Of a stretch of 64,000 nt of DNA, positions 7,917 to 41,019 are shown piece after piece. Where the stretch lies: the IMG/VR virus record IMGVR_UViG_3300020156_000002, positions 62,001 through 126,000 of that record, one strand, 5' to 3'. A program made the position numbers and the translations under genes. The DNA is from a virus. Within the stretch, counting starts at the first letter, position 1, and the number at the start of each line of letters is the position of its first letter. The notes under the pieces are model-generated. The model was given only the letters and a program-made list of their open reading frames with translations. It did not search any database and was not told the origin of the DNA.

Positions 7917-8915
7917 ATGAGTAATAATGAAATAACACTAGATGTTTTATTAGATCAAGTAAAAGACGGTGATATATATAAATCGCTATTAGTTACAAAT
8001 CAAAAATTGCTACATTCAGGATATAAAAGTTTAGTAGGTTCAATCAGTGGAGGTAGCGACAGTGATATTTTACTAGATTTATGTTGTAGAGTAGATAATG
8101 ACCGTAAAATTAAGTACGTATTCTTTGATACAGGACTTGAATATGAAGCGACGAAAGAACATCTTAAATATCTCGAAGAAAAATATGGAATTACTATTGA
8201 ACACGCAAAAGCAAAGAAACCAATACCAACATGCTGTAAAACATATGGTCAGCCATTTTTATCAAAACAAGTTAGCGAGTACATAAGTAGATTACAGAAA
8301 CACGAATTTAAATGGGAAGATAAACCTTTTGAAGAATTGTACAAAGAATATCCAAATTGCAAAGTGGGGTTAATGTGGTGGTGCAACGAGTGGGGAGATA
8401 AAAGTAAATTCAACATTAATTATAATAAAGGATTAAAAGAATTTATGATATTGAATCCACCCGATTTCAAAATATCTAACAAATGTTGTGATTATGCAAA
8501 AAAGAAAGTAGCAAAGGATTTTAAAAATATAAATGATATTGATTTAAGTTTAGTTGGTGTTAGAAAAGCCGAAGGCGGTGCTAGATCGTCAGCATACAAG
8601 AATTGTTTTTCTAGTAATAGCGATAAAGCAGATGAATATAGACCTATATTTTGGTATAAAGAAGAAACTAAGCGAGAATATGAAAAGCAGTTTGATGTAA
8701 TACATAGTAGATGTTATTCAGAATATGGATTAAAACGTACTGGTTGTGCTGGCTGTCCATATGGAAAAGATTTTGAGTTTGAATTAGAAGTAATACAAGA
8801 GCATGAGCCAAAATTATACATAGCAGTAAATAATATATTTGGAGATTCGTATAAATATACGAGAAAATATAATGAATTTAAAAGTAGTTATAAACCAAAT
8901 AAAACCATCAATTGA
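7917..8915 (+). CDS. PAPS-reductase-like ATP-pyrophosphatase family protein
   Basis: The protein (332 aa) starts at ATG 7917 behind AAGAAAGGAGATTTA. A PP-loop ISGGSDSD at about residues 42-50 and FFDTGLEYE are typical of the adenylyl-transferring N-type ATP pyrophosphatase fold shared by PAPS reductases and DndC. A cysteine-rich C-terminal part (KCCDYAKKK, then TGCAGCPYG) could hold an iron-sulfur cluster. Phages often carry such a gene; sulfate reduction is unlikely to be its role, and nucleic-acid thiolation or nucleotide modification is more plausible. No DndD/E or other phosphorothioation partners are visible nearby. Confidence 0.75.
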   Translation: MSNNEITLDVLLDQVKDGDIYKSLLVTNQKLLHSGYKSLVGSISGGSDSDILLDLCCRVDNDRKIKYVFFDTGLEYEATKEHLKYLEEKYGITIEHAKAKKPIPTCCKTYGQPFLSKQVSEYISRLQKHEFKWEDKPFEELYKEYPNCKVGLMWWCNEWGDKSKFNINYNKGLKEFMILNPPDFKISNKCCDYAKKKVAKDFKNINDIDLSLVGVRKAEGGARSSAYKNCFSSNSDKADEYRPIFWYKEETKREYEKQFDVIHSRCYSEYGLKRTGCAGCPYGKDFEFELEVIQEHEPKLYIAVNNIFGDSYKYTRKYNEFKSSYKPNKTIN

Positions 8916-12341: not shown

Positions 12342-13544
12342 ATGTCACGTAAAAAAACAGATATAAAAAATGTATCCTATGATGATGTAAAAAAACTATA
12401 TTATGTTACACTTTATTATGGAACTGACGAAAATAACAAACCAATTAAAAAGACTGTCACCTGTAAAACTAAACCAGAGGCAAAAAATATCATAAAAACA
12501 TTTGAAGCGGATAAAATAAAAGATGAAGTAGTTAAGCCGAAAAACGAAACTTTGGAAGAATGGTTAGATTATTGGTTAGAAAAAGTAGTTAAGCCCATAA
12601 ATGAATCAACAACCTATTGTGGATATAAAGCAATAATAAATCATATAAAGGATGCTGATATAGGTAAAATTCAGATTCAAAAACTAACTCCTAAAGATAT
12701 ACAAGAGTATTTTCAATACAAACTAACAACTCCACCAAAAGGTAAAAAAGAACCTTTGTCTACGAATACGGTAAAAAAGCATTATGTATTATTAAGAACA
12801 GCTTTAGGACTTGCTAAACAACAAGATGTTATTCGTAATAATCCAATGGAAAAAGTGGTGCCACCTAAATACGTTAAACCCAAAATTAACTTCTATAATC
12901 TTGAACAATTACAAAAGTTATTCTCTTTATCTGAAGGAACATTATTAGAACCTGCTGTGTATTTAGCTGGTATGTTAGGATTACGTAGGGAAGAAATCTC
13001 AGGACTGAAGTGGAAAAATGTTGACTTAAAAGAAAATATAATAATTATCGATGAAGTTGCTGTAAGAGCAGATAATGATGTAATTAAAAAGGCACCAAAA
13101 ACATCCACTTCAATTCGTAAATTAATAATACCAGATTTGCTTCGTAATGTGCTAGAAAGAGTTAATAATCAACAAATAGAAAATAGAAAAACTTATTTAA
13201 AAGAAGAAGCCAATGACAATTCAAACATTAATGAAAATGAATATGTAGTATCTAACTTGAACGGAGAACCTTTAAATCCGGCACATCTTTCATCTATGTT
13301 TGCAAAATTCATTAAAAAGAATAATTTGCCAGACATTTCGCTTAGAGGGTTAAGACATTCGGTAGCATCTGTGGCAAATGCATCTGGCGTAACGTTATAT
13401 GATATAAGCAAAATGCTGGGACATGCCAGTCCTGATATTACAGGGAAAGTATATGTTGAAGTCTTTGATAAGCACAACGAAAAAGCTGTTAATTCTGTGG
13501 CAGATGCAATAGGAAACAAAATGAATAACATAAATACAAATTAA
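12342..13544 (+). CDS. int: Tyrosine integrase
   Basis: The 400-residue protein has an N-terminal arm-binding region (about 1-60), a SAM-like core-binding domain (about 65-170) and a catalytic domain. Catalytic residues visible are R in GLRREE (about 215), R338 and H339 in LRGLRHS, H361 in MLGHAS and the nucleophile Y371 in GKVYVEV. The first His of the usual HxxR motif is Arg here, a tolerated variation. It recombines attP with the host tRNA-Gln gene. The ATG follows AAGGAGATTACAAATT. It is transcribed away from the attachment core. Confidence 0.92.
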   Translation: MSRKKTDIKNVSYDDVKKLYYVTLYYGTDENNKPIKKTVTCKTKPEAKNIIKTFEADKIKDEVVKPKNETLEEWLDYWLEKVVKPINESTTYCGYKAIINHIKDADIGKIQIQKLTPKDIQEYFQYKLTTPPKGKKEPLSTNTVKKHYVLLRTALGLAKQQDVIRNNPMEKVVPPKYVKPKINFYNLEQLQKLFSLSEGTLLEPAVYLAGMLGLRREEISGLKWKNVDLKENIIIIDEVAVRADNDVIKKAPKTSTSIRKLIIPDLLRNVLERVNNQQIENRKTYLKEEANDNSNINENEYVVSNLNGEPLNPAHLSSMFAKFIKKNNLPDISLRGLRHSVASVANASGVTLYDISKMLGHASPDITGKVYVEVFDKHNEKAVNSVADAIGNKMNNINTN

Positions 13545-19333: not shown

Positions 19334-19678
19334 TTAATAATAAATCCTTATAAAGCCATCATAACTTTCACCTACAAGAACAATAGTTATATAATTCCCA
19401 TCACTATGATATTGAATCATATCAACATTATCAGCAAGAAAAGAGTGCAATGCATATTGGTTGTCCCACAATATTTCATCTGCATCACTACAAATCACGA
19501 TACCTTGAACTAATTCCATTGTTAGATTGTATAACTCATAAGTACAGGGTTCATCGTTATCACTAATCCATTCTATGATAGTATAATGGTGAGGTGCTTG
19601 CCAATTATCATATTCTTCTAAAAATTCAATAAGATGATTAATTCTTGATTCTTGAACAGTAGGATAGATGTTAAGCAT
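19334..19678 (-). CDS. Antirepressor-coupled acidic partner protein, copy A (114 aa)
   Basis: The start overlaps the stop of the antirepressor in the string AATGCTTAA, with AGGAGG inside the end of the antirepressor gene, so it is translationally coupled. The protein aligns along its whole length with the product at 36010 (shared PT, FL, PH-Y-I, YEL-NL, LW, ITI and IRI-Y positions) and weakly with the one at 33974. All three lie directly after a regulator gene. I do not recognise the family. A partner that modulates the antirepressor, or a small effector it controls, is an inference from the coupling. Confidence 0.75.
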   Translation of the reverse strand: MLNIYPTVQESRINHLIEFLEEYDNWQAPHHYTIIEWISDNDEPCTYELYNLTMELVQGIVICSDADEILWDNQYALHSFLADNVDMIQYHSDGNYITIVLVGESYDGFIRIYY

Positions 19679-20450
19679 TGGCGTGTGCCTCCTGCAATTT
19701 TTCTAAATCAAATTCATCTTGCATATCCTTTTTGTTAATAAGTTTATATATGTAATTTAATCCTTTGGGTGAAACCAATGTAACACTACCAATCTTACCA
19801 TGCCTAGTTTCTTCTACAACCACTTTGAACATTCCATTATTTCTAAATCTTCCATATGGAACATTATAATTGCTTTGGCGAGTTAGAACTTTATTTTTTC
19901 TCAAGAAATCCATTAATTTTGTCCTACCGATTTCTACCATTCCTGCAACATCTATAAATTGAAGATATCCATCTGAGTCCATTAAATCTGAATATGCTTG
20001 TGCTTTTGGTTTTAATTCTGATATAATAGTATTCTTTTCTTGGATGGTTTTTTCTGCAATTTTTAATGCCTTTGCCATAATTAATTCTGGTGAATCCTCT
20101 TTAGAAATAGGAATATAACCGCCTGTAAGACGAATTTGTTTTAGATATTTTTTGATTTCATTCTTTAATGGTTTAGATTCTTTTTTACGTGAAGCCATTA
20201 GTGTATCATATAGACCATCTTCATTTACAAATACCTTTTCTTGTTCTCCTCCAAGGGTGTCAATTAAAAATACACCCTTTTGATCGTCTGATAATTCAGC
20301 ACTTTTAATCATTTGCCTGTAATTTGATATTCCAAGCCAATTTGCAATATCAGATGGTAAAAAATATGGATTTTCGATGCTTCCATAAAAATTAATTTCT
20401 TTTCCTAGTATTTCTTTCCTGCATACAATTTGTAATTTTACTTTTTTCAT
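19671..20450 (-). CDS. Phage antirepressor, module A (Bro-N / KilAC-type)
   Basis: The N-terminal region has FYGSIENPYFLPSDIANWLG and VFVNEDGLYDTLMASRK, the pattern of BRO-N antirepressors. A linker coiled coil (about 120-150) leads to a C-terminal KilAC-like/ANT domain (GYLQFIDVAGMVEIGRTKLMDFLRKN, SPKGLNYIYKLI). Antirepressors bind or remove a lysogeny repressor. The ATG at 20450 is preferred since GGAGG is 8 nt away; a TTG at 20465 opens a longer frame. It lies downstream of a small HTH gene, with an opposing short RNA in the gap, as in the P22 immI arrangement. Confidence 0.85.
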   Translation of the reverse strand: MKKVKLQIVCRKEILGKEINFYGSIENPYFLPSDIANWLGISNYRQMIKSAELSDDQKGVFLIDTLGGEQEKVFVNEDGLYDTLMASRKKESKPLKNEIKKYLKQIRLTGGYIPISKEDSPELIMAKALKIAEKTIQEKNTIISELKPKAQAYSDLMDSDGYLQFIDVAGMVEIGRTKLMDFLRKNKVLTRQSNYNVPYGRFRNNGMFKVVVEETRHGKIGSVTLVSPKGLNYIYKLINKKDMQDEFDLEKLQEAHANA

Positions 20451-20472
20451 ATTCATTTCCTCCAAAATATAA

Positions 20473-20501
20473 TTGATAATATTCTGAAAGCATGATATAA
20501 T
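20473..20501 (+). promoter_or_regulatory. Plus-strand promoter in module A
   Basis: TTGATA (20473-20478), 17-bp spacer, TATAAT (20496-20501) with an upstream TG. It lies just upstream of the antirepressor ribosome binding site and faces away from it, toward the small HTH gene. Confidence 0.78.
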
Positions 20502-20507
20502 AACAAT

Positions 20508-20577
20508 ATAAGAACAACATTCTTATGTATTGCAGTCACTTATTCTTTTCGACGAGAGAGTGGCTGCATTTTATTTA
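20508..20577 (+). ncRNA. Predicted sar-like antisense RNA, module A
   Basis: About 70 nt between a consensus promoter and a terminator. A 5' hairpin (TAAGAA with TTCTTA) precedes a 9-bp terminator stem (GCAGTCACT, 20532-20540, with AGTGGCTGC, 20559-20567) followed by a T-rich tail. It ends at the stop codon of the HTH gene and is complementary to the intercistronic region of the HTH-antirepressor mRNA. In P22 the sar RNA fills the corresponding gap and limits ant translation; the same role is inferred here. Confidence 0.7.
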
Positions 20578-20777
20578 TTCCTATTCAATTTGTTTCCGAT
20601 TTTTTCAACGGCTTCTAGGCTAAACAAATAGTTCCTTTTCCCTGCTTCACGCATCTCAGACTCATCTAAATCTAATGATTGAGCAACTCTTATTATATAG
20701 CTAGGAGTCATATCAAATTTCTTGGCAACTTCAGTAGTAATAAATATATTGCGAACGTCGTTTCTTTTATCGTTCAT
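20571..20777 (-). CDS. Small HTH regulator of module A
   Basis: The 68-residue protein has an MerR/HTH_17-like helix-turn-helix (ITTEVAKKFDMTPSYIIRVA) and a wing-like NYLFSLEAVEKI. ATG at 20777 lies 7 nt after AAGGAGG, better than the ATG six bases upstream. It occupies the place of Arc in the P22 immI region: first gene from a promoter with operator repeats, followed by antirepressor. It probably represses its own promoter. Confidence 0.7.
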   Translation of the reverse strand: MNDKRNDVRNIFITTEVAKKFDMTPSYIIRVAQSLDLDESEMREAGKRNYLFSLEAVEKIGNKLNRNK

Positions 20778-20788
20778 ATTCATACCTC

Positions 20789-20832
20789 CTTGTTACGTAG
20801 ATAATCATAACATGTAACAAGTCATATGTCAA
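20789..20832 (-). promoter_or_regulatory. Promoter and operator of module A
   Basis: On the minus strand TTGACA (complement of 20827-20832), a 17-bp spacer and TATGAT (complement of 20804-20809). An 8-bp inverted repeat, CTTGTTAC at 20789-20796 and GTAACAAG at 20814-20821, brackets the -10. This is a strong, repressible promoter for the HTH-antirepressor-partner operon. Confidence 0.78.
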
Positions 20833-20870
20833 TACTAAATATGAAGAAATTAACATTATTTTTCCCATCA

Positions 20871-20900
20871 AAAAAGCACTCTCCAAAGTAGAAGGGTGTT
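20871..20900 (-). terminator. Terminator after the PemK-like toxin gene
   Basis: AGCACTCT pairs, with G-U pairs, to AGGGTGTT and is followed on the minus strand by six U. It insulates the toxin-antitoxin unit from module A. Confidence 0.6.
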
Positions 20901-20964
20901 AAGTTGATTAATAATAATAATAAAAGCCTTGGAAATCCAAATAAGGCAACCAAAGCTTGATTAT

Positions 20965-21360
20965 TTATAAGTTATCTATGATATGTTCATATTCATCTAA
21001 ACTATGTATAAATTTAATTAATTTTTCAAAGAATGTTGTGTCTAAGTTTCCTATTACTTCGAAATCTAATTTTTTTCTATCAAAATAATAAAATTGTTCT
21101 GCTTTGATATATCCATCTTTTGTATTGCCATTTAAAACATTACTATCATTGTGAGTTATTTCAAAATTTCCAGGATACTCTAACTTTTTTAATCTTTGTT
21201 GAGGGGAAGAAAATGAAGACATAACATTACACATTAAATTATAATCCAATCCTTCTATTTTCCCATGCTCAACATTTAATACTACAAAAGAATGCTTGTC
21301 TATTTCTTTACCTTGACTAATATAACTCTTAACTAAAATAATATCCCCAACTTTGCACAT
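20965..21360 (-). CDS. PemK/MazF-like toxin (putative)
   Basis: The 131-residue protein opens with VGDIILVKSYISQGKEIDKH and SFVVLNVEHG, similar to the GDIVLVxxxxxxGKExxGxRPxxVL start of MazF/PemK toxins, and ends in a helix (FFEKLIKFIHSL). MazF-type toxins are mRNA interferases. It is preceded by a small acidic gene whose stop lies 3 nt upstream of this ATG, the usual antitoxin-toxin order. A relation to phage maintenance or exclusion is likely. The family call rests on the N-terminal pattern only. Confidence 0.55.
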   Translation of the reverse strand: MCKVGDIILVKSYISQGKEIDKHSFVVLNVEHGKIEGLDYNLMCNVMSSFSSPQQRLKKLEYPGNFEITHNDSNVLNGNTKDGYIKAEQFYYFDRKKLDFEVIGNLDTTFFEKLIKFIHSLDEYEHIIDNL

Positions 21361-21363
21361 TTA

Positions 21364-21582
21364 TTATTCCTCATTATTTGCTTTTGTAATTATAACTTTT
21401 TTATTTCCATTCAATACTTCATTGTCCCAAATTATTGGAGTTACATCTTTTAATGCTTCTTTAGATGATATAATCTTAGATTTCTTTGTGTTTATTATAT
21501 TCATATTCAATGTAGCATATCCAGCAGCACTCATAGAATTATCCTCCTCTTTCTTATCAAAATCATTTTTATTGTCTCTCAT
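21364..21582 (-). CDS. Putative antitoxin paired with the PemK-like toxin
   Basis: ATG at 21582 opens a 72-residue acidic protein with a disordered N terminus (MRDNKNDFDKKEEDNS) and a C-terminal part rich in charged residues. Its stop almost abuts the toxin start. An inverted repeat CTAACATAT/ATATGTTAG brackets the 60-bp region upstream and could be an autoregulatory site. Confidence 0.5.
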   Translation of the reverse strand: MRDNKNDFDKKEEDNSMSAAGYATLNMNIINTKKSKIISSKEALKDVTPIIWDNEVLNGNKKVIITKANNEE

Positions 21583-21823
21583 ATATATCACCAACTTTCT
21601 AACATATTTTATAATAAGTATTTACCATATAATATGTAGTATTCAGTTTGTAGATAATATATGTTAGTAGAAGTGTTACGTTTTGTCAAATAATACTTCC
21701 GTTTAGTTAAGTATACCACTGTTACAAATTTTGGACAAGTATAAAATGGTGAAATTTTCATTAAAAAATATTGGAGTCTGAGAGAGTATTTTTTTTAATC
21801 GAATTGAGCGTCCTATATGATAT

Positions 21824-21854
21824 CAAAAAAGCACCTACCTTGTGAGTAAGTGCT
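21824..21854 (-). terminator. Terminator after the PIN-toxin gene
   Basis: AGCACCTAC pairs with GTAAGTGCT (one mismatch), with six U on the minus strand. The following 21595-21823 stretch holds no gene; it contains AT-rich promoter-like sequence with TTGACA on the minus strand for the next toxin-antitoxin pair. Confidence 0.65.
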
Positions 21855-21871
21855 TAATGATTTTTACATAA

Positions 21872-22435
21872 CTAATAATCCTTATGTTTTGCCGTGGTAT
21901 AATAAAGATTATTCATATCTTTAAAGTAGGCGATATTACTTTCTATATTATATACTAATTTATTATCTACAGTTAAAAAACTAATACCAAATTCACTTGC
22001 TAAACTTGCATTAAAAGCATCTGCACTACCCAAAGCTTTACATGTTTCTACTTGCTTTAAATATGTATCTTTGTCTCCATCTAATGGAATAAGAATATCA
22101 TTGTCGATTAATATTTTTAACGAACTCAATGTATTCTTTTCAATTTCATCTTTTTGTTTATCAGTCAGTACTATTTCTGGATGTTTTTCAAGATAATTAT
22201 TGATAGTCTTCCTGTGGGTTGTAAGATGAGTGATTTCATTTAAAACACATGGATTAATATACAAAAAGATTGCATTATCATTATTAAAAATGTGATTTTC
22301 AAACAGTGTCTTAACAGTAGTGTGCCATGTATCATGCTCGCTTAGATATGCAATTAATACACCTGTATCTAATAGTATATCTTCTTTTTCTAAAAAGCCA
22401 TTAAATGACCTATCATTAAAGTTAATTTTTTGCAT
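21872..22435 (-). CDS. PIN-domain toxin (VapC-like)
   Basis: The 187-residue protein has the PIN acidic residues in order: ILLDTGVLIAYL (D), NPCVLNEITHL (E), GSADAFNASLA (D) and FLTVDNKL (D). It is longer than most VapC proteins (130-140 aa) because of a helical insert in the middle. PIN toxins are Mg-dependent RNases that cut tRNA or rRNA. It overlaps the end of an upstream small gene by 14 nt, the classical antitoxin-toxin coupling. Confidence 0.8.
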   Translation of the reverse strand: MQKINFNDRSFNGFLEKEDILLDTGVLIAYLSEHDTWHTTVKTLFENHIFNNDNAIFLYINPCVLNEITHLTTHRKTINNYLEKHPEIVLTDKQKDEIEKNTLSSLKILIDNDILIPLDGDKDTYLKQVETCKALGSADAFNASLASEFGISFLTVDNKLVYNIESNIAYFKDMNNLYYTTAKHKDY

Positions 22436-32979: not shown

Positions 32980-33822
32980 ACTGAAGTCTACATTCATTGA
33001 CTGAGATACCTTCTCAAACACATCAGATATGTGCATTAATTGGTCTTCAGCCAAAGAAAATTGTTCCATTGTACCCTGTAAAATATCAGCGGTGTCAGAT
33101 GCCGACATACCTGTTACATTACTTAATAGAAGTGTAGGTTGTGCTTTTTGTAAGATACTTTGTGCGGTTTCATTAGCGTTAGCATAGATAGTAACAGCTT
33201 GAAGCACATTAGATGCAGATGTTTTTAAATCTTTAGCCATTTTTATCGATGATTCTGCTATATTATTTAAATCACTTTTTGAAACATCCATGGTGTAATT
33301 TATATTTGTAAGAGCAGAGTCAAGTTCTCCTACAAATCTTACTCCATCTTGGAATGAACGCCAAACACCCATTAATAAATTTCCAGCTACAAGCCATTCT
33401 GAAAATTTTGTAATATTATTTTTTAATACTTTTCCTATGGATTGAACTTCTAGCCCGGCTTCTTTGGCAGTACCCTTGAATTTTGTTAACTGTGAATTAG
33501 CAGTAGTTAAATCTATTTGTTTTCCTGATTCTTGAGCCTTTTTAAATGCATTAGATATATCATCTATTTCACTTGCATAAGCTTTTAATTTACTTTGATT
33601 TAAAGAATTTGTATAAGCCTGGAAACTCTTTCTTGCTCCTTCAGCTCTATTCCTTACTATATCAAGTTTATCAGCCATTTGTTGAATTAATTTAGTGTCA
33701 ACTTTTGCTTTTATACCAACTTCATATTCCTTTTCTAGTGCTTTAAGTTTAGACCTTAATTCTTTGTCTGCCTTAGTTAAATCATATAGTGCTTCTATTT
33801 TAATACGATAATCATTAGCCAT
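32980..33822 (-). CDS. Tape measure protein, first exon (281 codons)
   Basis: The N-terminal part of the tape measure: a helical start (IKIEALYDLTKADKELRSKL), then the conserved PhageMin_Tail/TP901 core (WRSFQDGVRFVGELDSALTN, MAKDLKTSASNVLQAVTIYAN, MEQFSLAEDQLMHISDVFEK). Left alone it would read four more codons into the intron and stop at 32962. The conserved core is cut exactly where other tape measures continue into GIxEIAEGIxxSGSVA. AAAGGAG lies 14 nt upstream of the ATG. Confidence 0.88.
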
Positions 33823-34340: not shown

Positions 34341-34556
34341 TCACACATTATGTTTACGCCAATCCAAGTGGAAGATTTCATTGGCTTCCATCTTTAAACC
34401 TCTTGACAATTTTAGAATTGTGATCTGAGACGGTATTTCCAAACCGTTCTCGACACGGCTAATAGTACCCTTGTCAACTCCTGATAGTTTAGCTAACGTA
34501 TTCTGACTTATATTTTTCTCCCATCTGATTTTCTTAAGATTATTCAACACCTTCAT
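34341..34556 (-). CDS. Xre/Cro-type repressor (71 aa)
   Basis: A complete HTH_3 domain is visible: LKKIRWEKNISQNTLAKLSGVDKG followed by TISRVENGLEIPS and LSRGL. Proteins of this size are Cro/CI-like regulators of phages. It lies in a cassette inserted between the second recombinase and the tape measure gene. The upstream gap holds a TGTTATAACA palindrome at 34601-34610, a likely operator. Confidence 0.8.
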   Translation of the reverse strand: MKVLNNLKKIRWEKNISQNTLAKLSGVDKGTISRVENGLEIPSQITILKLSRGLKMEANEIFHLDWRKHNV

Positions 34557-34600
34557 TCTGCACCTATTTTATGTGTGATGTGTGAATATAGTATTAATAG

Positions 34601-34610
34601 TGTTATAACA
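34601..34610. promoter_or_regulatory. Palindrome upstream of the Xre repressor gene
   Basis: TGTTATAACA is a perfect 10-bp palindrome about 45 bp before the repressor start. The 34557-34843 gap otherwise contains no gene; a plus-strand extended -10 (TGATATAAT, hexamer 34727-34732) without a good -35 is the only other visible signal. Confidence 0.4.
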
Positions 34611-34843
34611 GTGTTTACTGCATGGGTATATTTTACTACACAACCCGTTGCGTATGTACAACACTTTACAAAATATTAATCTAAATTCGACAAGAAGTTG
34701 CAGTATTAGTATAACTTGTGAAATGATATAATTACAAGAAATATTTGTTTTAATTGGATGGTAATAATTACCACGGGTTTTGTAATAGGGATGGTGAGAG
34801 TGGGAAGAGGGTAAAAATCATAAGATGAATGATTTATTGGGAT

Positions 34844-35893
34844 TTATTCTTCAGCTTTAATTTCATCTGGTGTGATAGTATCATTGGTCAAAGCATCTTT
34901 TAATTTAGCCAAACCTTTCCATTTTCTATCTTTTGCCGTGTTGTCATTATAGATATCTACTAATGCATCTGAAGACCATTTTTGGAGTTCCTGAACAAGT
35001 TCTTTTTCAAGACCTATACCCAAAAGATAGCTACACCAAAAATGCCTGCCTGCGTGAAGATACCAATGTTGAGATAAGTGTGAATCCCATTTTTCAATCC
35101 AACTTCTTATTGTACTAACTTTTGCAGGTGTACCATCAGACTTAATAAATATAAAATCATGTTCTTGACCATGTTCTTTCATAATCTTTTCTCTAATTGG
35201 CAAATATTTATCGTAATAAGGCACAAACATATCTTTAATCAAATAACGTGGGATTTCTTTTGCATTGACCCCTCTACCTTTTACCTTTATTTCTCTTGTG
35301 GTTTCCAAAAACAATCCTTCAAACGCAGTATGATTATAATCAATCATGTCCGTTGTAAACCTTACAATTTCAGAAGCTCTTGTTCCGGAAGACATTATTA
35401 AGGCTAAAAGGCATTGTTCATTAGATTTATTTATCTCTCCTAACCAGTCCATTAATTTATCTAATTCCTCTTTTTTAAAGACAGATTTCTTACGAGTATT
35501 TTCTTTTGGCATTTTGTCAATAAACACTAATAGATTTCTAAAATTAGGATATTTCTCATCATAAAATTTCTCAATAAACTTTGATAATTCAGACAAACTA
35601 CTATGTACTTGCGAATATCTATTTGCTTTCCATTGCAATTCGGTAAGTCCATAATCAAAGAATTCCTGCATTTCAATTTTCTTTATCTCTGTAAATGGTT
35701 TGTTGTCATTTTCTAATAGATTCCATACGAAAAATATATTGAAATTTGATTTATAAGCTTTTACACTTTTTGGGCTACTTTTTGTTGCAAAGTTCTTCAA
35801 ATATTTATCAACCAACTTTTGACTTTCTGGATTGATTTGTTTGATTAACTCTGGTGTTGTTATTTGTTTTCTAAATGTTTTTCTTGCTGCCAT
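34844..35893 (-). CDS. Second tyrosine recombinase
   Basis: The 349-residue protein has an N-terminal SAM-like domain (SPKSVKAYKSNFNIFFVW) and a catalytic domain with R172 (GTRASEI), H280/R283/H284 (LHAGRHFW), W306 in the place of the last His, and nucleophile Y315 (VDIYND). It is not beside the attachment site but among tail genes, next to regulators. It may mobilise the cassette, resolve dimers or invert DNA; no inverted repeats pointing to a switch were seen. Confidence 0.8.
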   Translation of the reverse strand: MAARKTFRKQITTPELIKQINPESQKLVDKYLKNFATKSSPKSVKAYKSNFNIFFVWNLLENDNKPFTEIKKIEMQEFFDYGLTELQWKANRYSQVHSSLSELSKFIEKFYDEKYPNFRNLLVFIDKMPKENTRKKSVFKKEELDKLMDWLGEINKSNEQCLLALIMSSGTRASEIVRFTTDMIDYNHTAFEGLFLETTREIKVKGRGVNAKEIPRYLIKDMFVPYYDKYLPIREKIMKEHGQEHDFIFIKSDGTPAKVSTIRSWIEKWDSHLSQHWYLHAGRHFWCSYLLGIGLEKELVQELQKWSSDALVDIYNDNTAKDRKWKGLAKLKDALTNDTITPDEIKAEE

Positions 35894-36009: not shown

Positions 36010-36393
36010 TTAATAAAATATTCTAATAATTAATCCATATGTATCATCATCGCCAATTGTGAGAGTTATCCAATCATTTGCTTGATGAAATGTGATATAA
36101 TCTATGTGTTCAATTAGTATTGTGTGAATATAATGATTTTCGTTCCATAATAGTTCTTGTTCATCATCTGCAATAAGAATACCTTTTTCATATTTCATTC
36201 TTAGATTTTCTAATTCATAAGAATAAACTGGAAGAGTACCTTCTTCATTGGTGTACATTTCAGCGATTATATATTTATGTGGATGTTCTTTGTTATATAA
36301 TATATCTAAAAATGAGACAAGATAGTCTATGTCTTCTTGTGTCGCAGTTGGATAATCTGGAAATTCATATGGTGTTGGAGAGGGATTAAGCAT
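36010..36393 (-). CDS. Antirepressor-coupled acidic partner protein, copy B (127 aa)
   Basis: ATG at 36393 overlaps the antirepressor stop in AATGCTTAA, the same nine bases as in module A, with AGGAGG 9 nt upstream. The protein aligns with the one at 19334 over about 110 residues: PHKYIIAEMY against PHHYTIIEWI, YSYELENLRMKYEKGILIAD against CTYELYNLTMELVQGIVICS, and both end IRI-F/Y-Y. Unknown family. The conserved coupling implies it acts together with the antirepressor. Confidence 0.78.
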   Translation of the reverse strand: MLNPSPTPYEFPDYPTATQEDIDYLVSFLDILYNKEHPHKYIIAEMYTNEEGTLPVYSYELENLRMKYEKGILIADDEQELLWNENHYIHTILIEHIDYITFHQANDWITLTIGDDDTYGLIIRIFY

Positions 36394-37234
36394 TAGCTCG
36401 TACCTCCTGTTTCCCACTATTTATCCTACTTAAATATTTTTTATCAAATTTAACATAAATATCGCTGTGCTTATTTAAGTATTTGTATAAGAAATCTTGT
36501 CCTTTGGGTGTAACATATGTAACTGCAACACTATACTTTTTATCATTCTTTTTTACGATGACATAATTCTTTACTACAAAATATTCTTTTGAAGCATATT
36601 GCTCACTTGGAGAATTATCTTGATTAAAAACTTTCATATATCTAAGGAATTCCATGAATTTGTTTCTTCTAGCTTTCAATTCTTTAGAAGACTGATTCAT
36701 TGATAATAATCCTTTTGAGTCTAAATATAAATCGAATTGTTCTGCTTTTGGCTTCATTTCTTCATTTTCTTTTGCAAGATTAGCTGATAACAATAGTGCT
36801 TCTGATAATGTTTTTGGTATTTGAAAATTATCAATTGTAATATCATCATTATGTATAAATGCTTTAGCAAGTACATCTTTTGCTTTTATCTGATATTCAA
36901 TTAATTTATTAGCCATATCTGGAGTATCAAGTCTCATTTTAGGAGTAATAGATATTTTTGCCAACCATAAAGGCAAGTAATCTAATTCTATTGCAATGGT
37001 ACTATTATTTTCATCAAATACCCCTGCCTCAAATTTGAGGCACCCTCTTCTCAATACAATATCTTCTTGGATATTAAGTACTTGTCTGTCTTTTTGACCT
37101 TTGGTAAAACCAATACCATTACAAACCCAACTAACGCCAACATACATTTTTCCAGTTTCTAAGTCTTTCGTTACTTTCAATAAATCTCCATTAAATTCAA
37201 CATCCTTTGTTACTAATTCGTTTTTCATATTCAT
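36386..37234 (-). CDS. Phage antirepressor, module B
   Basis: The first 120 residues (VEFNGDLLKVTKDLETGKMY, VSWVCNGIGF, LPLWLAKISITPKM) match the P22_AR_N-type antirepressor N terminus. A linker helix and a C-terminal ANT-like domain with SPSEQYASKEYFVVKN and VTPKGQDFLYKYLN follow. The C-terminal WVTPKG-like segment is shared with module A (SPKGLNYIYKL). It would inactivate a repressor and induce lytic growth. It is preceded by an Arc-like gene, with a plus-strand short RNA in the gap. The start is the ATG at 37234 after GAAAGGATGAT. Confidence 0.82.
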   Translation of the reverse strand: MNMKNELVTKDVEFNGDLLKVTKDLETGKMYVGVSWVCNGIGFTKGQKDRQVLNIQEDIVLRRGCLKFEAGVFDENNSTIAIELDYLPLWLAKISITPKMRLDTPDMANKLIEYQIKAKDVLAKAFIHNDDITIDNFQIPKTLSEALLLSANLAKENEEMKPKAEQFDLYLDSKGLLSMNQSSKELKARRNKFMEFLRYMKVFNQDNSPSEQYASKEYFVVKNYVIVKKNDKKYSVAVTYVTPKGQDFLYKYLNKHSDIYVKFDKKYLSRINSGKQEVRANA

Positions 37235-37264
37235 ATCATCCTTTCATATTTATATATTAATGTT

Positions 37265-37293
37265 TTGACATATAAATAAAGGTTTGATATAAT
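37265..37293 (+). promoter_or_regulatory. Consensus plus-strand promoter in module B
   Basis: TTGACA (37265-37270), 17-bp spacer, TATAAT (37288-37293), with TG at the extended -10 position. It is a perfect sigma-A promoter directed against the operon, just upstream of the antirepressor ribosome binding site. Confidence 0.85.
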
Positions 37294-37299
37294 TATAGA

Positions 37300-37378
37300 C
37301 AGATATAGCATTGACTATATTAATTATGTACCGACAGTCCTCTCACCGACCAAAGTTAGAAGGACTGTCTTTTATTTT
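37300..37378 (+). ncRNA. Predicted sar-like antisense RNA, module B
   Basis: About 78 nt with a 5' hairpin (ATATAG with CTATAT) and a terminator stem GACAGTCCT (37333-37341) with AGGACTGTC (37361-37369) plus a T tail. It ends four bases before the stop codon of the Arc-like gene. It has the same design as the RNA of module A but a different loop sequence, so each could act only on its own antirepressor message. Confidence 0.72.
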
Positions 37379-37382
37379 GCCA

Positions 37383-37556
37383 TCATTCAGATAACTCCTT
37401 TAAATTAATAACTCCATCTGAATATGCAGACATTAATATTTCCAATACTTCATTCATATCAAGTTTGTTTTTTACACAAGCTACTTTGAAATTTTGAATA
37501 ATTTCTTCGTCAATAGTAGTCATAAAACGTTTTCTTGATTTTTGATTATCTGACAT
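37383..37556 (-). CDS. Arc-like ribbon-helix-helix repressor (57 aa)
   Basis: KRFMTTIDEEIIQNFKVACV followed by KLDMNEVLEILMSAY is a ribbon-helix-helix fold: a beta strand then two helices. P22 Arc has 53 residues and the same gene position, first in the operon before the antirepressor. ATG at 37556 lies behind GAAAGGTGTGAATG. It should bind as a dimer to the palindrome overlapping its promoter. Confidence 0.75.
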   Translation of the reverse strand: MSDNQKSRKRFMTTIDEEIIQNFKVACVKNKLDMNEVLEILMSAYSDGVINLKELSE

Positions 37557-37587
37557 ATCATTCACACCTTTCATATATCATACATTA

Positions 37588-37616
37588 AATATATCACGCA
37601 TATATTACATTGTCAA
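37588..37616 (-). promoter_or_regulatory. Promoter and operator of module B
   Basis: Minus-strand TTGACA (complement of 37611-37616), 17-bp spacer and TATATT (complement of 37588-37593). The inverted repeat AATATAT-cacgc-ATATATT (37588-37606) covers the -10 and the spacer, as the Arc operator covers Pant in P22. Confidence 0.78.
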
Positions 37617-37881: not shown

Positions 37882-40800
37882 TTAATTACTAGATTTTAAT
37901 ATATCAATTTCAGACTTAAGTTCTTGTATTGCTTTTACTAAATATGGTATGAGTTTTGTATCCGATACACCCCAAGCTGCTTTACTTTCATCTTCAGCTT
38001 TGTCAACACATTGTGGGAATACTTCGTATAATTCTTGCGCAATAAATCCTTCACTTTCAACATACTTATCTTCGGATACAGTAAATTTACCATTTTCATC
38101 TAAATACCATTCGTGTTTATTAAAAGTACATGGTTTTATTGCACATACTTTATCCAATACGCTATCCATAGGTCTTATATCTGATTTTGTTCTTTTATCT
38201 GATGTTGAAGTCCAACTGGTTCCATTTTGAGCCAAGTATACGCCAGTAGTATTACTAGTTCCAGCATTTGAAACATATAACCCACTATTACCAGACGCAT
38301 ATCTAAATATATTTGCCAAAAGTGTACCAGTTGTATCAGTTGCCCATCTGATACCATATGCACCACTATTACCATTTAAAGATATATCATTATAATTGTA
38401 TATAGAAGTAGTATGCACCTGTGAAATTTTATTAGTGTTACTACCAACATAGAATACATTAGTTGCATTCGGTATAATATCAGCGCCAATTGTAATACTT
38501 GAATTATTTACAGCTAACCATTTTGTTCCGTCCGCACCGTATAAAAATGTTGCAGGGGAACTCATTAATATTCTATTTCTAGTGCCATCGTTTATAGCGA
38601 AATTTGTATTTGCTTTTATAGTATTTGCCAAATACAAATCTCCTTGAAGATATAAATCTTTCCATCTAAAACTAGATGTACCTAAATCATGAGTATTATG
38701 ATAAGCTGGCACTGCATTTGCATCTATTCCAAATAATGTGTTAGCTAAATATATTTTCTTAGTTCCGTCAGCACTATATAGGTAAGTATGAGTATCATAA
38801 ACCGTCATTCTATCTCTTGTACCATCATTTATCGCAAATCCATTTCCCACAATGATATCATCACCAAGATATATATCACCTGAAAGATATAAATCCTTCC
38901 ATCTCACACTTGAAATCCCTAAAGTAAAGGTGTTGTGTGTTACAGGATGTAGTCCGTCACCACTTATATTTGCAATACCAGTACCATTACTCTGCAAAGT
39001 TACAGTACCACTTGTACCATTTAATGTTAGTGCATTTCCAGAACCACTATTAATAGTTGCAATATTTGGAGTTGTTAAAGTTTTATTTGTAAGTGTCTGT
39101 GCTCTTGTAGTTGTAACTATATCTACACCATTAACTTGAACAAAACCACTACCTTTAGTTAATAAATTCAAAGATATATTAGTATCTCCACCAGTTGCAG
39201 ATATTGTTGGATTTCCACCAGTTGCTGCATTTGTAATTGTAATCTCATTTACAGCAGAATCTACGGCAGTAGGGAATTTAATTAATTCATTCCCGTTAGC
39301 ATCGGCTATATAACTATCGCTTGTTATTCTTGGAGCAGCTAATGTTTTATTTGTAAGAGTGTCTGTCGTATTTGTACCAACCAAAGTTGTTGCTGCGTCA
39401 GGAATTATTACTGTTTTATTACTTGTAAATTGCGTTTGCACTATACCAGTAACATTTGTAGAACCTGCTACATTAAAACTTAGTTTTTTAGTTTGGTCAA
39501 CGGCATCAACAAAATATGTAGTATTATCTGATAATGATTTATTATATAAATTCTGTGTATCAAGAGTGGTAACAACGTCAACACCGTTTGCTTTAACTTT
39601 GCCAGCTCCAGTTGGAACTAAGTTAACATCTTTATTTGTTCCACCAGACGATAAAGTTAATGCATCATCACTTATAACAGAACCTTTAATTAGCAAAGGT
39701 TTCTTAATAGACACTTTGGTAATTTTCCAATAATCGTTTGGTAAACTATAAGTGTATTCTATGCCAGTATTTGTGCTTGTATATATTTGACCATCGACTA
39801 AAGTTGTATTAGGAAAGGTAGCAGTTTCTGATTCCTCTGTATTATCTTGAATAAATGTTTGTGTTGCTGGAATCCACAGCAAATGAGTACTCATAGTAAC
39901 GTCATAGATTATCTTAGTAGAAGTATTTCCAGATTCTTTAAATATTGCCCTCTCTATTGTACTCATTGATAGGTACGCTGTTGATGGTGACATTATCCTA
40001 TTATGACTAATAATAAAAAGCGTACCCGCATATCTTATAAAACTACTAGCGAGTTCAACTCCTGTAAATTTTAATGTCAAGGATAAATTGTAAACAGTTC
40101 CTTCTACGATATCTGAAAGTATTGTTACTTCTCTTGGCGCATTCACTTCTGTTGAATCTAACAATGCACTAGAAAGCGTCTCACCTACGCTGTAATGGAT
40201 TTTGTCTCCCAATGTTTCCTGATAAACTGTAGTACTATAATCATTTGATGAACCAACTTTAAATCGTAAACTCAAGCCATTTACAGGATATGAGACAAAT
40301 GTATTTGGTGATGATAAATTAAATTTACTAAGGAACTTATCAAGTACTATTTTCCAATATTTATTTGTATTGTCCCACGTATACACCCTTTCTGCTCCCA
40401 CTAGCACTTGTCCTTCCGCTGGATTGGTTGGAATAGCAATAGACGCAATCTGTCCGGTATATTGAATGTAAGAAAATGAATTTTTTCTATATAACATTTG
40501 TACATGTAAATCCGTATCGAGATAGAAAAACTCTTTAGTATTCCAATCAACATTATTTAATAATGCTAATCTAGCTGCTGAACTTCCAGAGAATCCTATC
40601 GCATCTCCACTCGTACCAATTGGTATTGATTGATTTAATTTTAATGATTTCCATTCGCCACTTACGTATTGTAATAAAGCAACCACTCCAGTACCATTTG
40701 GATTGGTTTCAGAAACTTCGTCATATGTAAATAGGAATTGTACATCTGCTATACCAGTTGGAAATGCGGCTTGTACTTCTGATAAATTAAGATATTGACC

Positions 40801-41019
40801 TCTATAACTTGCAACACCTGCATGTGTAAGTAAATCATATGTATAAGGTAAACCATCTTTTAAAAATGTTAAAGTATGAATAGTATCACCATTTAAAAGT
40901 GTTTCTTTTAACGTCATTCCTTGAAAATTTGCGGCTGCTAATTTAGTTGCATTGTCTTTTGACATACTATCAATAAGTCCAACAGCAACTCCTATATCTA
41001 ATCCGCTTTGTTGTGCCAT
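37882..41019 (-). CDS. Tail fibre with S74 intramolecular chaperone
   Basis: The 1045-residue protein has an N-terminal virion-binding region, many short beta repeats (ITSDS, TLTNKTL, NGVDIVTT), and about three copies of a segment with LGTSSFRWKDLYLQGDLYL and FAINDGTRxR (around residues 700-870). It ends in a peptidase S74 domain (TSDKRTKSDIRPMDSVLDKV, SEGFIAQELYEVFPQC, and a C-terminal coiled coil). The S74 domain trimerises the fibre then cleaves itself off. It is upstream of immunity-like module B; two S74 proteins occur in the window. Confidence 0.85.
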   Translation of the reverse strand: MAQQSGLDIGVAVGLIDSMSKDNATKLAAANFQGMTLKETLLNGDTIHTLTFLKDGLPYTYDLLTHAGVASYRGQYLNLSEVQAAFPTGIADVQFLFTYDEVSETNPNGTGVVALLQYVSGEWKSLKLNQSIPIGTSGDAIGFSGSSAARLALLNNVDWNTKEFFYLDTDLHVQMLYRKNSFSYIQYTGQIASIAIPTNPAEGQVLVGAERVYTWDNTNKYWKIVLDKFLSKFNLSSPNTFVSYPVNGLSLRFKVGSSNDYSTTVYQETLGDKIHYSVGETLSSALLDSTEVNAPREVTILSDIVEGTVYNLSLTLKFTGVELASSFIRYAGTLFIISHNRIMSPSTAYLSMSTIERAIFKESGNTSTKIIYDVTMSTHLLWIPATQTFIQDNTEESETATFPNTTLVDGQIYTSTNTGIEYTYSLPNDYWKITKVSIKKPLLIKGSVISDDALTLSSGGTNKDVNLVPTGAGKVKANGVDVVTTLDTQNLYNKSLSDNTTYFVDAVDQTKKLSFNVAGSTNVTGIVQTQFTSNKTVIIPDAATTLVGTNTTDTLTNKTLAAPRITSDSYIADANGNELIKFPTAVDSAVNEITITNAATGGNPTISATGGDTNISLNLLTKGSGFVQVNGVDIVTTTRAQTLTNKTLTTPNIATINSGSGNALTLNGTSGTVTLQSNGTGIANISGDGLHPVTHNTFTLGISSVRWKDLYLSGDIYLGDDIIVGNGFAINDGTRDRMTVYDTHTYLYSADGTKKIYLANTLFGIDANAVPAYHNTHDLGTSSFRWKDLYLQGDLYLANTIKANTNFAINDGTRNRILMSSPATFLYGADGTKWLAVNNSSITIGADIIPNATNVFYVGSNTNKISQVHTTSIYNYNDISLNGNSGAYGIRWATDTTGTLLANIFRYASGNSGLYVSNAGTSNTTGVYLAQNGTSWTSTSDKRTKSDIRPMDSVLDKVCAIKPCTFNKHEWYLDENGKFTVSEDKYVESEGFIAQELYEVFPQCVDKAEDESKAAWGVSDTKLIPYLVKAIQELKSEIDILKSSN

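What the first reader, a model, noticed from the sequence alone, without database searches (positions are those of the whole stretch)
36010..37616. Module B: an Arc-sar-ant-like immunity cassette in a Firmicutes tail operon, with an added partner gene
Seen in sequence: a leftward promoter (TTGACA-17-TATATT) covered by the palindrome AATATAT-cacgc-ATATATT; a 57-aa ribbon-helix-helix gene; an opposing consensus promoter (TTGACA-17-TATAAT) and short RNA with terminator filling the gap; an antirepressor; and a small acidic protein coupled through AATGCTTAA. Known: P22 immI has Arc (53 aa) repressing Pant, sar RNA antisense to the arc-ant gap, and ant, located among late genes. The same logic in an AT-rich Gram-positive phage with an extra coupled protein looks undescribed to me.
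Basis: partly seen in the sequence, partly recalled or inferred. Interest (0 to 1): 0.88.

Follow-up and report, generated by a model that had tools for sequence, protein, structure and literature searches.

The report
Two-layer off-switch for phage antirepressor
This phage appears to keep a gene that can undo viral dormancy switched off with both a tiny repressor protein and a small RNA made from the opposite DNA strand; the same two-layer switch, wired to many different antirepressors, turned up in phages, prophages and plasmids of many Gram-positive bacteria and appears undescribed there.

Summary
Leftward: a near-consensus promoter with a palindrome, a 57-aa ribbon-helix-helix (RHH) gene, a 148-nt gap, an antirepressor (P22_AR_N + KilAC/ANT) and an overlapping acidic 127-aa gene. 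In the gap, rightward: a 12/12 extended -10 promoter and a predicted ~79-nt RNA whose terminator abuts the RHH stop codon. All 17 RHH relatives used to find the pattern share this gap layout (about 14 independent; Bacillota, one Synergistota), against 4 of 474 control gene ends and 0 of 1,700 shuffles. In a later set, 4 of 7 independent loci have promoter and terminator, 6 of 7 the terminator. The controller stays while the cargo changes: three or more antirepressor types, once an integrase. Similarity between the window and L040 stops at the antirepressor start codon. P22 Arc-sar-ant is a good analogy for the output, but this RNA ends before the ribosome site instead of covering it, and the RHH is nearer to CopG than to Arc. 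The control half most resembles CopG-RNAII-RepB of plasmid pMV158. Verdict: an apparently undescribed, widespread variant of a known kind (RHH plus antisense RNA), confidence about 0.65. Transcription of the RNA and its effect are inferred. The partner gene is not a fixed part.

The parts
37588..37616 (-). promoter of the RHH-ant operon, TTGACA-17-TATATT
   Evidence: 11/12; similar promoter in L003, L040, L024 (sequence)
37588..37606 (.). palindrome AATATAT-CACGC-ATATATT over the -10 and spacer; candidate RHH operator (inference)
   Evidence: sequence; the exact palindrome is not conserved. The better conserved block is TATGATATATGAAAGG just downstream of the -10
37383..37556 (-). 57-aa ribbon-helix-helix repressor gene
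   Evidence: PHROG Arc-like repressor 5e-7; ParG Pfam 0.0022, below cut-off; hhalign to CopG 1.1e-4; closest folds CopG 1ea4, not significant
37265..37293 (+). antisense RNA promoter TTGACA-17-TATAAT with extended -10
   Evidence: same site in L003, L040 (12/12) and L024 (11/12), and a promoter in this register in all 17 discovery loci
37300..37378 (+). predicted ~79-nt antisense RNA: 5' stem-loop 37302-37321, linker, terminator hairpin, T tract
   Evidence: transcription inferred, not shown
37333..37369 (+). terminator hairpin; its 19-nt loop has the CCGACCAAAG motif inverted relative to L003, L040 and L024
37231..37292 (-). mRNA hairpin that pairs the ant Shine-Dalgarno (AAAGG) and start codon; overlaps the antisense promoter
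   Evidence: comparable hairpin in window, L003, L040, L024 (z -2.0 to -4.2); SD unpaired probability 0.23, 0.49, 0.33, 0.02
36386..37234 (-). antirepressor, P22_AR_N + KilAC/ANT, 282 aa
   Evidence: weak match to P22 Ant N-terminal half, hhalign E 0.0027
36010..36393 (-). small acidic partner protein, 127 aa, ATG overlaps the ant stop (AATGCTTAA)
   Evidence: no family, no significant fold match

Best explanation
It is a dual-control cassette that holds a phage antirepressor off. Layer 1 (inferred from family): the RHH protein represses its own promoter and so the whole RHH-ant-partner operon. Layer 2 (promoter and terminator seen, expression inferred): a strong promoter in the RHH-ant gap makes a ~75-85-nt antisense RNA whose terminator abuts the RHH stop. 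The RNA is complementary to the leader upstream of the ant ribosome site, not to the site itself. Pairing with the leader, as for pMV158 RNAII, together with opposing transcription, keeps ant translation low. In the window group the ant Shine-Dalgarno is also tucked into a hairpin. In some other loci the antisense target itself can pair with the anti-Shine-Dalgarno, so RNA binding would push the leader into the closed form. When repressor and RNA are diluted or overwhelmed, for example on entry into a naive cell or a change in copy number, antirepressor is made and inactivates a lytic repressor of the same or another prophage (inferred). The controller is modular: the downstream gene has been exchanged many times.
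For: Promoter plus terminator in the same register in 17/17 RHH loci vs 4/474 controls and 0/1,700 shuffles; later-fetched loci 4/7 both, 6/7 hairpin. The predicted RNA start lies 65-83 nt after the RHH stop in all 17, with a long-loop terminator at the stop; stem sequences differ between loci and pairing is kept. Window-L040 DNA similarity runs 37654-37217 and stops at the ant start, where L040 carries an unrelated 300-aa protein. L042 and L048 are close relatives with 93% identical DNA through the controller but different antirepressor N-terminal halves. Ant homologues without an RHH exist. SD hairpins; competing decoy pairings in L051, L058 and, more weakly, L059, L052, L054. pMV158 precedent: CopG plus RNAII, with a target just upstream of the repB start signals, inhibits translation (PMC4485353).
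Against: No transcript data; promoters are consensus matches. The thresholds were set after the 17 loci were seen, and one later locus (L060) lacks promoter and terminator. In the window group folding gives no change of SD accessibility when the antisense target is blocked (0.23 vs 0.23), so the switch step is by analogy. The decoy pairing clearly beats shuffles only in L051 and L058. The RHH operator and the lytic repressor that Ant would target are unknown. The RHH fold call rests on weak profile matches.
Confidence: 0.65

Rival explanations
1. A strict P22-type immI: the RNA acts like sar by covering the ant ribosome site.
For: Same gene order, similar sizes, antirepressor output, position next to tail genes.
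Against: The predicted RNA starts 47-210 nt upstream of the downstream start codon in all 16 loci measured, with the whole promoter in between; P22 sar abuts ant and its promoter is inside ant.
Confidence: 0.08
2. The opposing promoter works mainly in cis by transcriptional interference; the RNA product itself is a by-product.
For: Promoter is 12/12 with extended -10 and faces the operon a few dozen nt from the ant start.
Against: The RNA has a placed terminator and a 5' stem-loop in the loci read, and in the near-identical pair L027/L028 changes cluster in the RNA loop, which interference alone would not need.
Confidence: 0.15
3. The RNA acts mainly in trans on other targets (for example a co-resident phage) rather than on its own operon.
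For: The loop motif CUUUGGUCGG recurs in unrelated stems (L040, L028, L047, L052).
Against: It is fully complementary to its own operon leader, and the L027/L028 pair shows loop divergence instead of conservation.
Confidence: 0.07
4. The RHH and antisense signals are an ordinary partition or toxin-antitoxin remnant (ParG-like) that happens to precede antirepressors.
For: Weak ParG Pfam match (0.0022).
Against: No ParA/ParF or toxin directly next to the RHH in the window; the downstream gene is an antirepressor-type protein in most loci.
Confidence: 0.05

Closest known systems
CopG-RNAII-RepB control region of plasmid pMV158
   Same: Small RHH repressor, antisense RNA with terminator directly after the RHH stop, RNA target upstream of (not covering) the translation start signals of the downstream gene (PMC4485353; record NZ_MZ396393).
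   Different: Output is an antirepressor, not a replication initiator; gap 115-281 nt instead of 60; RNA ~76-84 nt with two stem-loops instead of 48 nt with one; the antisense promoter lies wholly in the gap instead of reaching into repB.
P22 immunity I region (arc-sar-ant-mnt)
   Same: RHH repressor, antisense RNA in the gap, antirepressor with a P22_AR_N-type N-terminus, moron next to tail genes (PMC2629481).
   Different: sar reaches the ant start codon and blocks its ribosome site; no mnt seen here; Arc is a poorer match than CopG.
P1/P7 c4 antisense RNA control of ant
   Same: Antisense RNA controls an antirepressor (own knowledge).
   Different: c4 is cut from the same transcript (own knowledge); no C4 Rfam match in the window.
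Plasmid incompatibility antisense RNAs with recognition loops (e.g. R1, pIP501)
   Same: Loop changes create new specificities (PMC4485353); L027/L028 differ mainly in the loop.
   Different: Here specificity by loop is inferred only; for pMV158 RNAII itself the loop is of secondary importance (PMC4485353).

Membership tests
P22 immI (arc-sar-ant) | Small RHH repressor gene upstream of ant in one operon | tested here: met
   gene order and weak RHH matches
P22 immI (arc-sar-ant) | Antisense RNA covers the ant ribosome site, promoter inside ant | tested here: not met
P22 immI (arc-sar-ant) | RHH protein is Arc family | tested here: inconclusive
   PHROG Arc-like 5e-7; hhalign to P22 Arc E 0.033, prob 1.5%
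P22 immI (arc-sar-ant) | Divergent mnt repressor | tested here: not met
   next upstream genes are a 51-aa ORF and a tail fibre on the same strand
CopG-RNAII-RepB (pMV158) | RHH repressor related to CopG | tested here: inconclusive
   hhalign E 1.1e-4, prob 57%; fold hits to 1ea4 not significant
CopG-RNAII-RepB (pMV158) | Antisense RNA terminates at the RHH stop and its target lies upstream of the next start signals | tested here: met
   predicted from sequence:
CopG-RNAII-RepB (pMV158) | Downstream gene is a rolling-circle initiator | tested here: not met
   antirepressor
P22_AR_N/KilAC antirepressors | PF10547 and PF03374 above gathering score | tested here: met
Dual RHH/antisense-RNA control units (functional class) | Antisense transcript made and represses the downstream gene | not testable with these tools
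   needs RNA data and reporter assay

The most novel reading that the evidence does not exclude
A widespread, uncatalogued antisense-RNA family of Bacillota phages, paired with a CopG-like repressor, forms an exchangeable control unit into which different antirepressors (and an integrase) are plugged. Its terminator loop acts as a specificity tag that changes or flips between co-resident prophages, so that each RNA silences only its own leader, like plasmid incompatibility.
Probability: 0.35. Interest if true: 0.82.

Novelty: new variant of a known kind. Interest (0 to 1): 0.64.

Why it matters
Antirepressors decide when prophages leave dormancy and how prophages in one cell influence each other, yet antisense control of them was known to me only from enterobacterial phages. 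A two-layer control unit found across Bacillota phages, prophages and plasmid-borne elements, with swappable output and variable RNA loops, makes it testable whether phages use plasmid-style antisense specificity to stay independent of each other. It also gives a simple signature (RHH, antisense promoter, terminator at the stop) for annotating such regions.

Tried and rejected
Rfam at gathering level for the window and at E-value level for the gap and eight related loci: no family for the RNA. Built-in terminator scan: negative only because of its loop limit. Antisense RNA covering the ant RBS: rejected by coordinates. Conserved SD hairpin by RNAalifold on the MAFFT alignment: only 7 weak pairs, the indels break the alignment, so single-sequence folds were used. 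Decoy/anti-SD switch in the window group: not supported energetically. Partner protein by Pfam, PHROGs and predicted structure: no match. Partner relatives by tblastn in phages and a viral-contig scan: none. Searches of about 1,200 Bacillota genomes with RHH profiles gave only a handful of relatives, so the unit is broad in taxonomy but sparse in any one group. One of the 4 control positives is in the window (gene end 22864); I read its sequence as an ordinary terminator. Original sar papers are not held; the P22 layout was taken from the annotated record. Papers joining antirepressors with RHH/CopG and antisense RNA in Gram-positive phages: none found, open-access library only.

Full report
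OBSERVATION. The window is bases 62001-126000 of a 130,653-base viral record. Between a tail-fibre gene with an S74 chaperone domain (37882-41019) and a tyrosine integrase gene (34844-35893), all leftward, lie the RHH gene, the antirepressor and the partner gene. The RHH promoter (11/12) and the opposing promoter (12/12, extended -10) are the two best promoter-like sites in 4 kb. The hairpin after the opposing promoter has 9 pairs, a 19-nt loop and TTTTATTTT behind it; it is unique in 64 kb, and the 79-nt RNA folds far better than its shuffles. The antirepressor has P22_AR_N and KilAC/ANT domains.

RELATIVES. L003 (viral contig) keeps RHH, RNA, Ant (77% identical) and partner (38%) between tail genes. 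L024 (contig of Clostridium sp. HBUAS56010) keeps RHH, RNA and Ant (61%) with another 70-aa gene behind. L040 keeps RHH (84%) and the RNA, but the next gene is an unrelated 300-aa protein. DNA similarity between window and L040 runs from 37654 to 37217 and stops at the ant start codon. The 300-aa protein is 54% identical to a protein in L027. Other Ant homologues, including that of Psychrobacillus phage Perkons, have no such RHH in front. So RHH plus RNA is one unit and Ant another.

SURVEY. RHH homologues were then collected from Lachnospiraceae and other Bacillota genomes, viral contigs, a human-gut phage record (MT835469) and plasmid records. In 17 of 17 loci, a few of them near-duplicates (about 14 independent), an antisense promoter puts a start 65-83 nt after the RHH stop, and a hairpin with a T-rich tail ends within about 12-16 nt of that stop. 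With the same thresholds 4 of 474 ends of other genes and 0 of 1,700 dinucleotide shuffles score. The thresholds were chosen after seeing the loci. Nine loci fetched afterwards with a more distant profile (L057 equals L055, and L063/L064 are one) gave, for 7 independent loci, 4 with promoter and terminator, 2 with terminator only and 1 with neither. The survey reaches Bacillales, Clostridia and one Synergistota plasmid (L056).

CARGO. Downstream genes are mostly different antirepressor families by PHROGs: P22_AR type, Bro/KilA types and others. L040 and L043 carry a family without a name. L054, on a Lysinibacillus plasmid, carries a tyrosine integrase. L042 and L048 belong to closely related phages: 93% identical DNA through the controller, 95% from the antirepressor C-terminal half onward, but different antirepressor N-terminal halves.

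THE RNA. It is 76-84 nt in most loci (in L024 about 70; in L003 and L047 the automatic call chose a later hairpin), with a 5' stem-loop and a 3' long-loop terminator. Stem sequences differ between loci yet pair; since hairpins were selected for pairing, this is description, not independent proof. The loop motif CUUUGGUCGG on the antisense strand recurs in unrelated stems: the L028 loop scores 16 of 17 against that of L040 although their RHH proteins are only about a third identical. In the window the same loop sits in reverse orientation while the stem and the T tract keep theirs. L027 and L028, in one genome, are about 95% identical in DNA, yet the loop is the most changed stretch. I read this as loop-borne specificity; it is not shown.

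MECHANISM. In P22, sar ends at the ant start codon and its promoter lies in ant, and it blocks the ribosome site (PMC7968456). Here the RNA ends 34-196 nt before the Shine-Dalgarno. In pMV158 the 48-nt RNAII pairs with the copG-repB gap immediately upstream of the repB start signals and still reduces repB translation to about 3% (PMC4485353), so a leader-binding RNA can work. In the window, L003, L040 and L024 the ant Shine-Dalgarno pairs in a hairpin that overlaps the antisense promoter. In L051 and L058 the antisense target can pair strongly with the anti-Shine-Dalgarno (better than 97-99% of shuffles), and blocking the target lowers SD accessibility in L051, L052, L054 and L028. A leader that flips to closed when the RNA binds is therefore supported by folding in part of the family and is by analogy only in the window. 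The RHH as operon repressor follows from the family (Arc, CopG) and is untested; the palindrome over its promoter is not conserved exactly.

COMPARISON. The RHH profile aligns to CopG with E 1.1e-4 and to Arc with E 0.033; Foldseek's best three hits are CopG but not significant. The unit combines a pMV158-like control half with a P22-like output half. It is not filed as a member of either: for P22 the position of the RNA and mnt fail, for pMV158 the downstream gene fails. Rfam 15 has no family for the RNA. Open-access searches found no description.

VERDICT. Observation confirmed; interpretation partly right; a new and apparently widespread variant of RHH-plus-antisense control. The added partner gene is a small acidic protein without known relatives and varies between loci.

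Noticed in passing
window 32424-32961: The tape-measure gene is split: N-terminal part 32962-33822 and C-terminal part 27819-32423 are separated by about 540 nt of untranslatable DNA; homology to the L024 tape measure spans both parts. Looks like an intron, but no Rfam match at E<=1.
   Followed up: partly
L024 1740-8300: In the Clostridium prophage contig the tape-measure reading frame breaks at 1739 and a long open frame resumes near 8300; the 6.5 kb between carries the whole cassette, a NYN protein, an XRE-like gene and a possible acetyltransferase.
   Followed up: partly
window 37342-37360: Terminator loop inverted relative to L003, L040 and L024 while stem and T tract keep orientation.
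   Followed up: partly
L027 and L028: Two copies of the unit in one genome, about 95% identical DNA, with differences concentrated in the RNA loop.
   Followed up: partly
L054 2998-4303: The same RHH and antisense RNA unit stands before a tyrosine integrase on Lysinibacillus plasmid pFN9C.
   Followed up: partly
L043 1784-1866 (-): Skipping-rope RNA (RF02924, 72.8 bits) just upstream of the RHH gene.
   Followed up: no
L027, L028, L043, L047, L049, 100-280 nt after the RHH stop: Long ant leaders (255-281 nt) with a similar-looking block before the ant start; possible further RNA element.
   Followed up: no
window 19671-22435: A second antirepressor (Bro-N + KilAC, 19671-20465), a PemK-like gene (20965-21360) and a PIN gene (21872-22435).
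   Followed up: no
window 34341-35893 and 12342-13544: Two tyrosine integrases, one with an HTH gene next to it, in one phage record.
   Followed up: no
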